Assembly (NCBI GenBank): GCA_003169895.1
Contig: PNAE01000003.1
Location: 1 to 64,000 of the forward strand
DNA: 64,000 bases
From: Gemmatimonadota bacterium
GTDB taxonomy: Bacteria > Gemmatimonadota > Gemmatimonadetes > Gemmatimonadales > GWC2-71-9
Direction: 5' to 3'
Of the stretch, positions 35,365 through 36,547 are shown one piece after another. The stretch's first letter is position 1; each line of letters opens with the position of its first letter. The notes under the pieces were generated by a model, which was given only the letters and a program-made list of their open reading frames with translations, searched no databases and was not told the origin of the DNA. Position numbers and translations under genes: made by a program.

Positions 35365-35485
35365 GCATAACAAGCGCTTGCTGCTGACCGGGTGTGAGCG
35401 TGTCGGCGCGGCGCGAAGTATGATTGGATTGAAGGACTGCGCCGCGCCGCCACACACCCGGCAGCAGAAGCGCAGAGTCGTTAGC
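35365..35485 (+). other. attC-like site 1
   Basis: R'' GCATAAC at 35365-35371; core GTTAGC at 35480-35485. The arms CTGCTGACCGGGTGTG and CACACCCGGCAGCAG pair perfectly except for one unpaired A, as in extrahelical bases of attC; further inward GGCGCGGCGC pairs with GCGCCGCGCC. About 121 bp. Nearly identical arms recur in sites 2 and 6. Confidence 0.88.
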
Positions 35486-36547
35486 AACTGTCTCGAATGT
35501 CAAGCGTGTTGAGGGTCCCATCGGCGATTCTGATGCAGCATCGCGTTGAGGATCGTGAGCAGCTTTCGCATGCACGCCGTCGCGGCGACTTTGAACGGCT
35601 TTCCGGCAGCGCGCAGGCGCTCGTAGAACACGCGCAGCACGGCATTGTGCTTGAGGCCGACGAGCGCGGCCATGTAGAGCACGGCACGGACGGGTGCGCG
35701 ACCACCCCACACCATGCGCTTGCCTCGCATCGTGCCGCTGTCGCGATTCATTGGGGCCACACCGACGAGGGCGGCGATCTGATGCCGGGAGAGATGACCG
35801 AGCTCGGGTAGCGTCGCCAGTAGCGTGAGCGCGGTGACGGGGCCGACGCCGGGCACGCTGCGCAGCAGATCGGACTTCGCTTGGTATAACGGGCTCGCGG
35901 CGACGGCGTCCTGCAAGTCGCCGTCGACATCGGTGAGCCGCTTCTCGAGCCATCGGATATGCTGGCTGATGTCGCGCTTGACGGGGCCGCGCGCAAAGCC
36001 GAGACGATTCTTTTCGGCGGTGAGCATTTCCACGATCTGCCGGCGCCGCGTGAGCAGGCTCTCGAGGAGCTGCGCGGCTTCGTCGGGGAGCGGTCGGGGC
36101 TCGGGCCGCACGCGCTGCGCGAAGTCGGCGAGCATGCCGGCATCGAGCGCATCGGTCTTGGCGAGTTGCCCCATGGCCCTCGCGAAGTCACGCACCTGGC
36201 GCGGATTCACCACGGCGACCGGGAGCCCGGCCTTGGCGAGCGTGATCGCAGTGAGCATCTCGAAGCCGCCGGTGGCTTCCATGACGACGAGCATTGGTGC
36301 GAGTGCGACGAGGCGCGGCATCAGGTCCGCGAGGCCGTGCTCGTCGTTGGTGACCGTCCAGCTCTCCCCATCGGGGAGCGAGGCGATGTCGAGCGTCGCC
36401 TTCGACACATCGATGCCGATGTAGCAATCCATGAGTGGCTCCGTGCAAGAAACGATCGGCGTGGCCCAACCTTGCGTGATGCGGGGTCCAGCCCCCGGCA
36501 ACTGTTCGGGCTCTCGGCGATCAACCACGGGTGGCACCCAGGCTAAC
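35486..36547 (-). mobile_element. IS110-family insertion abutting attC site 1
   Basis: The element fills the space between the GTTAGC core of attC 1 and a GGCTAAC at 36541-36547, so the ends carry inverted copies of the attC core. The transposase stop is about 15 bp from one end, and 110 bp of non-coding sequence precede its start on the other, where IS110 elements encode a guide (bridge) RNA. Exact ends are not proven. Confidence 0.7.
35500..36432 (-). CDS. IS110-family transposase
   Basis: A 310-residue transposase. The N-terminal DEDD domain begins [14 protein letters not shown], with [10 protein letters not shown] and [25 protein letters not shown], giving the D, E, D, D residues of the RuvC-like fold. 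The C-terminal transposase_20 domain has [24 protein letters not shown] and [18 protein letters not shown]-like [14 protein letters not shown] with the catalytic serine. The gene appears intact. Its position against an attC core fits the attC-targeting branch of IS110/IS1111 elements, but that is inferred from position. It is opposite in direction to the cassettes. Confidence 0.94.

What the first reader, a model, noticed from the sequence alone, without database searches (positions are those of the whole stretch)
35480..36547. IS110 element flush against an attC core, with inverted GTTAGC at its ends
attC 1 ends GTTAGC at 35480-35485; the far side of the element reads GGCTAAC at 36541-36547. 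The transposase stop is about 15 bp from one end, leaving 110 bp of structured non-coding sequence at the other, a place where IS110 elements make bridge RNA. Some IS1111-type elements are known to target attC. Here the guide RNA may recognise attC.
Basis: partly seen in the sequence, partly recalled or inferred. Interest (0 to 1): 0.62.

Follow-up and report, generated by a model that had tools for sequence, protein, structure and literature searches.

The report
RNA-guided IS110 element programmed for attC
This is a jumping gene that uses its own guide RNA to insert into the recombination sites (attC) of integron gene cassettes; a distant cousin group was already known to do this, but this branch reaches the same target with the guide built at the opposite end of the element.

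Summary
The element is real, but its boundaries differ from the finding. It is a 1,144-bp IS110-group element (35483-36626, transposase on the minus strand, 310 aa, D8/E52/D94/D97/S232 present), closest in the PDB to ISCro4 and IS621. It is not an IS1111 element: its 194-bp non-coding end lies upstream of the transposase. It sits exactly at the R' core of attC 1. Joining the flanks restores ...GTC-GTTAGAC, the same core as intact attC 2. The "GGCTAAC end" at 36541-36547 is not an end. It lies inside the bridge-RNA region and is the right target guide (5'-UCGUUAG), complementary to the attC core. Across 50 non-redundant relatives with many different targets, this guide matches the flanking DNA at 227 of 250 positions (shuffled 88 +/- 8.5, maximum 117 of 5,000), with 35 perfect. 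So the guide-attC match is part of a family-wide rule. Nine of 19 elements beside a CTAAC flank sit in recognisable attC hairpins. One relative carries guides for the other attC end. The left guide matches poorly at the window's own site, and some relatives with the same guide sit outside attC. IS1111-attC elements, with 3' guides, are the known analogue.

The parts
35365..35486 (+). attC 1: hairpin site of the upstream cassette; its R' core now reads GTTAG|CA because the element follows the AG
   Evidence: score 23.1; 0-1 hits per shuffled window; paralogous to attC 2 and attC 3 (91% and 82%); hairpin body stays intact after insertion
35483..35484 (.). core dinucleotide AG (CT on the element strand), right side
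   Evidence: joining the flanks restores GTTAGAC
35485..35499 (-). right non-coding end (RE), ...GAGACAGTTG|CT
   Evidence: identical end in own-genome copies C6:165972 and C8:307074 and in relatives
35498..35503 (-). TTGACA -35 box of the circle-junction promoter, overlapping the transposase stop codon
   Evidence: with TATCTC at 36619-36624 it forms TTGACA-17 bp-TATCTC across the RE-LE junction; 44 of 48 relatives with a TTGA box have exactly 17 bp
35500..36432 (-). IS110-group RNA-guided transposase/recombinase, 310 aa, D8 E52 D94 D97 and S232
   Evidence: NF033542 235.9 bits (cut-off 140); PF01548 and PF02371; ISCro4 E=1e-42, IS621 E=6e-38
36433..36626 (-). left non-coding end (LE) encoding the predicted bridge RNA
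   Evidence: 194 bp; alignment of 30 relatives, 12 of 26 predicted pairs with compensatory double changes
36567..36574 (-). left target guide (LTG) TTGCGC-CT
   Evidence: position by alignment A1; poor match to the window's own left flank TGGCGGT-CT
36543..36549 (-). right target guide (RTG) TCGTTAG, complementary to CT-AACGA of attC 1
36498..36506 (-). left donor guide (LDG) AACAGTTGC, same sequence as the element's right end
36470..36475 (-). right donor guide (RDG) GCAAGG, pairs with CTTG at the left end
   Evidence: invariant CAAG column
36627..36628 (.). core dinucleotide AG, left-end side
36629..37470 (+). rest of the next cassette, starting ACCGCC; ORF 36667-37470 of unknown family
37479..37601 (+). 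attC 2, intact, R' = GTTAGAC, the same core as the reconstructed empty attC 1
40845..40965 (+). attC 3, R' = GTTAGCC (approximate left edge)
   Evidence: (82% identical to attC 1)

Best explanation
An IS110-group (IS621/ISCro4-like) insertion sequence whose bridge RNA carries an attC-core guide. Proposed cycle: the excised circle joins RE to LE and creates a promoter (TTGACA-17-TATCTC) that transcribes the LE. The RNA's 3' loop (LDG AACAGTTGC, RDG GCAAGG) holds the element's own junction, and its 5' loop holds the target. The right target guide UCGUUAG pairs with CTAACGA of the attC R' end; the left guide contacts the start of the next cassette. The recombinase then exchanges strands at the CT core. 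The element lands between GTT and the rest of the attC core, in fixed orientation, without target duplication beyond the 2-bp core. Shown here: the boundaries, the reconstructed empty attC, the guide/target co-variation across the family, the conserved RNA structure, the junction-promoter spacing, and other copies at attC. Inferred: transcription, RNA binding, catalysis, and present-day activity.
For: Guide/target co-variation in 50 non-redundant relatives: 227/250 RTG positions match, 35/50 perfect, against 88 +/- 8.5 (maximum 117) in 5,000 shuffles. The left guide also tracks its flank (mean exact match 4.46 nt against 2.75 +/- 0.15 shuffled). Even within the attC-guided set, the variable base beside CGTTAG follows the local attC base in 10 of 12. 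Joined flanks give GTTAGAC, as in attC 2. Nine elements sit in attC hairpins (window, L116, L087, L093, L036, L112, L088, L110, L095), and L087 lies in an array of at least eight attC-like sites. Conserved RNA with 12 compensatory pairs. Junction promoter spacing of 17 bp in 44 of 48. Protein matches NCBI's IS110 RNA-guided transposase model.
Against: At the window site the left guide fits poorly (only 2 contiguous matches including the core C). About half of the CTAAC-flanked copies (L115, L113, L089, L120, L126, own-genome C6 and C8 fragments) are not at recognisable attC sites, so the guide specifies a short sequence and not an attC as such. The single-sequence RNA fold is not unusual (z -0.55). 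No transcript or transposition data exist for this element.
Confidence: 0.9

Rival explanations
1. It is an ordinary member of the known IS1111-attC group (ISKpn4/ISPst6/ISPa21 type).
For: Same target class, same DEDD transposase superfamily, RNA guidance shown for ISKpn4 and ISPst6 (PMC11187229).
Against: The long non-coding end is upstream of the transposase (194 bp) while only about 15 bp lies downstream; no inverted repeats link the two ends; best PDB relatives are IS621 and ISCro4; core CT and ends CT|TGTAT...ACAGTTG|CT.
Confidence: 0.03
2. The attC location is incidental: the element is guided to a short motif (CT-AACG) and attC sites are hit only because they contain it.
For: CTAACG occurs 19 times in the window and roughly half of the AAC-flanked copies are outside recognisable attC sites.
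Against: Nine of 19 copies in attC is far more than attC's tiny share of such motifs would give (about 3 of 19 CTAACG sites even in this attC-bearing window); 10 of 12 guides also match the next attC base; left guides of L087, L093, L120 and L116 match the cassette start too. attC sites recur, so a guide matching them has many landing sites.
Confidence: 0.25
3. attC placement reflects recombination by the integron integrase (the element was carried in as part of a cassette) rather than its own targeting.
For: The element abuts the IntI crossover point G|TT, and the genome has an integron integrase-like gene.
Against: The crossover is at the AG core two bases inside, as in every relative at non-attC targets; the joined flanks restore one continuous attC core; no attC of its own lies on the left-end side.
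Confidence: 0.04

Closest known systems
IS621 and ISCro4 (IS110 group, bridge RNA recombinases; PMC11208160, PDB 8wt6, 9t56)
   Same: Transposase homology, 5' non-coding end (191 bp in IS621, 194 bp here), target loop then donor loop, CT core, junction promoter, no terminal inverted repeats.
   Different: Target is an attC core instead of a REP sequence (IS621); right target guide about 7 nt including the core.
IS1111-attC group (ISKpn4, ISPst6, ISPa21, ISPa25; Tetu & Holmes 2008, Post & Hall 2009; PMC11187229)
   Same: Inserts at one end of integron attC sites; guide RNA matches both target strands.
   Different: IS1111 elements carry the guide RNA downstream of tnp, have subterminal inverted repeats and the reverse order of target matches; attC preference appears to have arisen separately here.
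Class C-attC group II introns (known from citation in PMC9229058; not analysed)
   Same: Another mobile element using integron attC sites.
   Different: Retroelement with a different chemistry.

Membership tests
IS110 group (bridge RNA recombinases) | DEDD RuvC-like domain plus Transposase_20 domain with conserved serine | tested here: met
   PF01548, PF02371; NF033542 above cut-off; D8, E52, D94, D97, S232 (motif positions)
IS110 group (bridge RNA recombinases) | Long non-coding end upstream of tnp | tested here: met
   194 bp upstream, 15 bp downstream; boundaries from copies and relatives
IS110 group (bridge RNA recombinases) | Target guides that match the insertion site | tested here: met
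   RTG 227/250 in 50 relatives; window RTG perfect, window LTG poor
IS110 group (bridge RNA recombinases) | Donor guides matching the element's own ends | tested here: met
   LDG AACAGTTGC equals RE; CAAG of RDG pairs with CTTG of LE
IS110 group (bridge RNA recombinases) | Promoter formed at the circle junction | tested here: met
   TTGACA-17-TATCTC; 17 bp in 44 of 48 relatives with a TTGA box; activity not tested
IS110 group (bridge RNA recombinases) | RNA bound by transposase and transposition activity | not testable with these tools
   needs experiment
IS1111-attC group | Subterminal inverted repeats of 11-13 bp | tested here: not met
   no inverted repeat pairs the two ends among the 25 longest of 34 pairs listed
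IS1111-attC group | Long non-coding region downstream of tnp | tested here: not met
   only about 15 bp downstream
IS1111-attC group | Insertion at one end of attC | tested here: met

The most novel reading that the evidence does not exclude
IS110-group bridge RNAs have been naturally reprogrammed onto integron attC sites more than once and at both ends: R' guides (CGUUAG) in two branches, and an R''/L'' guide (LTG GCAAACC-CT, RTG UAACAAG) in L118, a relative of the window element. Because the R'-type insertion leaves the attC hairpin and the G|TT crossover intact, the element plus the following cassette could form a composite cassette movable by the integron integrase, so the element would gain a second route of spread.
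Probability: 0.3. Interest if true: 0.65.

Novelty: new variant of a known kind. Interest (0 to 1): 0.5.

Why it matters
It shows that attC targeting is not confined to the IS1111 group. A separate branch with the guide RNA at the opposite end reaches the same integron sites, and the guide sequence explains why. The family offers natural experiments on how bridge RNAs are retargeted (same recombinase branch, guides for R', R'' and unrelated sites), and a source of recombinases naturally aimed at integron recombination sites in Gemmatimonadota and others. In the held literature attC targeting is reported only for the IS1111 group among these elements; the two primary papers (2008, 2009) could not be read, so priority is not certain.

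Tried and rejected
Rfam has no match to the bridge RNA. A single-sequence fold of the LE is not better than shuffles (z -0.55); structure support comes only from the alignment. A simple duplex-energy test for attC hairpins did not separate attC from control flanks; a gapped two-arm test with a far GTT/GTC core did better (7 of 19 CTAAC-flanked sites against 3 of 65 controls at the strict level). The count of nine attC sites takes that test's ranking together with inspection of the far GTTRRRY-like core and paired arms; L088, L110 and L095 did not pass the strict level and were judged by eye, while L091, which passed it, was not counted. The IS1111 reading was rejected on anatomy. Tetu & Holmes 2008 is not held, so the exact IS1111-attC insertion position was not compared. 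First RTG registration was off by one and wrong for L092/L116; corrected.

Full report
What is there. The window carries an IS110 transposase gene on the minus strand (35500-36432, 310 aa). It matches NCBI's 'IS110 family RNA-guided transposase' model at 235.9 bits (cut-off 140), PF01548 and PF02371, and in the PDB ISCro4 (E 1.2e-42) and IS621 (E 5.9e-38). D8, E52, D94, D97 and S232 are at the expected motifs ([26 protein letters not shown]).

Boundaries. Two truncated copies elsewhere in the genome (C6, C8) share the right end ...CATTCGAGACAGTTGCTAAC|G and then diverge. Two left-end remnants (C11, C8:1208630) stay similar out to ...CAGAGAT(AT)ACAAG. About 60 relatives show the same ends, CT|TGTAT at the left and ACAGTTG|CT at the right. 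The element is therefore 35483-36626, or 35485-36628: 1,144 bp counting one copy of the AG (CT) core.

Target. Joining the flanks around one core gives ...CAGAGTC-GTT-AG-ACCGCC, a complete attC core GTTAGAC identical to that of intact attC 2 (37479-37601). attC 1 (35365-35486) is a strong hairpin and is 91% and 82% identical to attC 2 and attC 3. The element lies between GTT and the last bases of the core. The hairpin stem and the crossover position known for integron integrases (G|TT, established knowledge) stay together on one side.

Guide. In the RNA strand of the left end the sequence CCCGU-UCGUUAG-CC occurs where the aligned relatives have their right target guide. UCGUUAG is fully complementary to CTAACGA of attC 1. 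To test whether this is chance, guides and flanks were read from 50 non-redundant relatives in Gemmatimonadota, Nitrospirota, Chloroflexota, Acidobacteriota and others with many different targets (CTGACCC, CTGTCCC, CTCCAAT, CTGCGTT, CTTCGTG and more). The five programmable positions match in 227 of 250 cases and all five match in 35 of 50; with flanks shuffled among elements the mean is 88.0, sd 8.5, maximum 117 in 5,000. The left guide tracks its flank more weakly but clearly (4.46 nt against 2.75, sd 0.15). The window's own left flank (TGGCGGT-CT) fits its left guide (TTGCGC-CT) poorly. That is understandable if the left guide reads into the start of the next cassette, which differs from cassette to cassette; that reading is an inference.

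RNA structure and promoter. An alignment of 30 left ends supports an arm enclosing the target loop, a hairpin between the two target guides and a donor loop, with 12 of 26 pairs showing compensatory double changes. The donor guide AACAGTTGC repeats the right end, and CAAG pairs with the left end. When the ends are joined, TTGACA (overlapping the stop codon) and TATCTC stand 17 bp apart; 44 of 48 relatives with a TTGA box have exactly 17. Transcription from this junction is known for IS110 elements (PMC11208160) and inferred here.

Other attC-guided copies. Guides with CGUUAG occur in two branches of the tree: one with the window's family, other Gemmatimonadota-related genomes and a Poribacteria genome, one in another family of the same order. 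Single or multiple origin is not settled. Of 19 right flanks beginning CTAAC, nine are recognisable attC sites (window, L116, L087, L093, L036, L112, L088, L110 which is the same element as L063, L095, three of them by eye as stated under Tried and rejected), and L119 is probable but interrupted by Ns. L087 lies in an array of at least eight attC-like sites (L138). The others (for example L115, an identical twin of L093, and the two fragments in this genome) are at CTAACG or CTAAC sites outside recognisable attC. The variable base next to CGTTAG follows the local site in 10 of 12.

The other end of attC. L118 (same family as the window's host, closest to the window and L112 in the tree with 84/89 support, frameshifted transposase) has guides GCAAACC-CT and GUAACAAG, and its joined flanks form an attC hairpin cut at R'' (GCCTAACA-AG-GGTTTGC). 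A close relative thus carries guides for the opposite arm.

Comparison. IS1111-attC elements (ISKpn4, ISPst6, ISPa21) are known to enter one end of attC with a guide RNA downstream of tnp and have subterminal inverted repeats (PMC11187229, PMC11616780). The present element fails both defining anatomical features and belongs to the IS110 group proper. What is shared is the target, not the lineage. In the held library no paper found here describes attC targeting outside IS1111, but the primary attC papers are not held.

Verdict. The element is a new variant of a known kind: an IS110-group bridge-RNA element aimed at attC. Mechanism confidence is high for RNA-guided targeting, moderate for attC as the preferred natural niche, and low for any benefit from integron mobility.

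Noticed in passing
L118 / L154 (G081:C20): A relative whose bridge RNA is written for the opposite (R'') arm of attC and whose joined flanks form an attC hairpin; its transposase is frameshifted.
   Followed up: yes
G000:C8:314404-315083 (L150 about 16905-17585): Integron integrase-like gene split over two frames, next to two attC sites at C8:313021-313930 and about 7 kb from a truncated copy of this element.
   Followed up: partly
L088 (G161:C119): Left core reads AT (CACAT|TGTAT) with a left guide also reading CACAT, while the right core is CT: a possible natural core change tracked by the guide.
   Followed up: no
L093 and L115 (G138:C1:4069745 and 4465909): Identical elements in one genome, one in an attC and one at a CTAACGC site that is not a recognisable attC.
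   Followed up: partly
window 38205-39065: 286-aa cassette-region ORF ending in an HNH-like domain (weak NCBIfam match to IscB/Cas9d HNH part, far below cut-off).
   Followed up: no
window 34574-35356, 36667-37470, 37633-38181: Cassette ORFs without Pfam or NCBIfam matches (the third tested against NCBIfam only), as is usual for integron cassettes.
   Followed up: no
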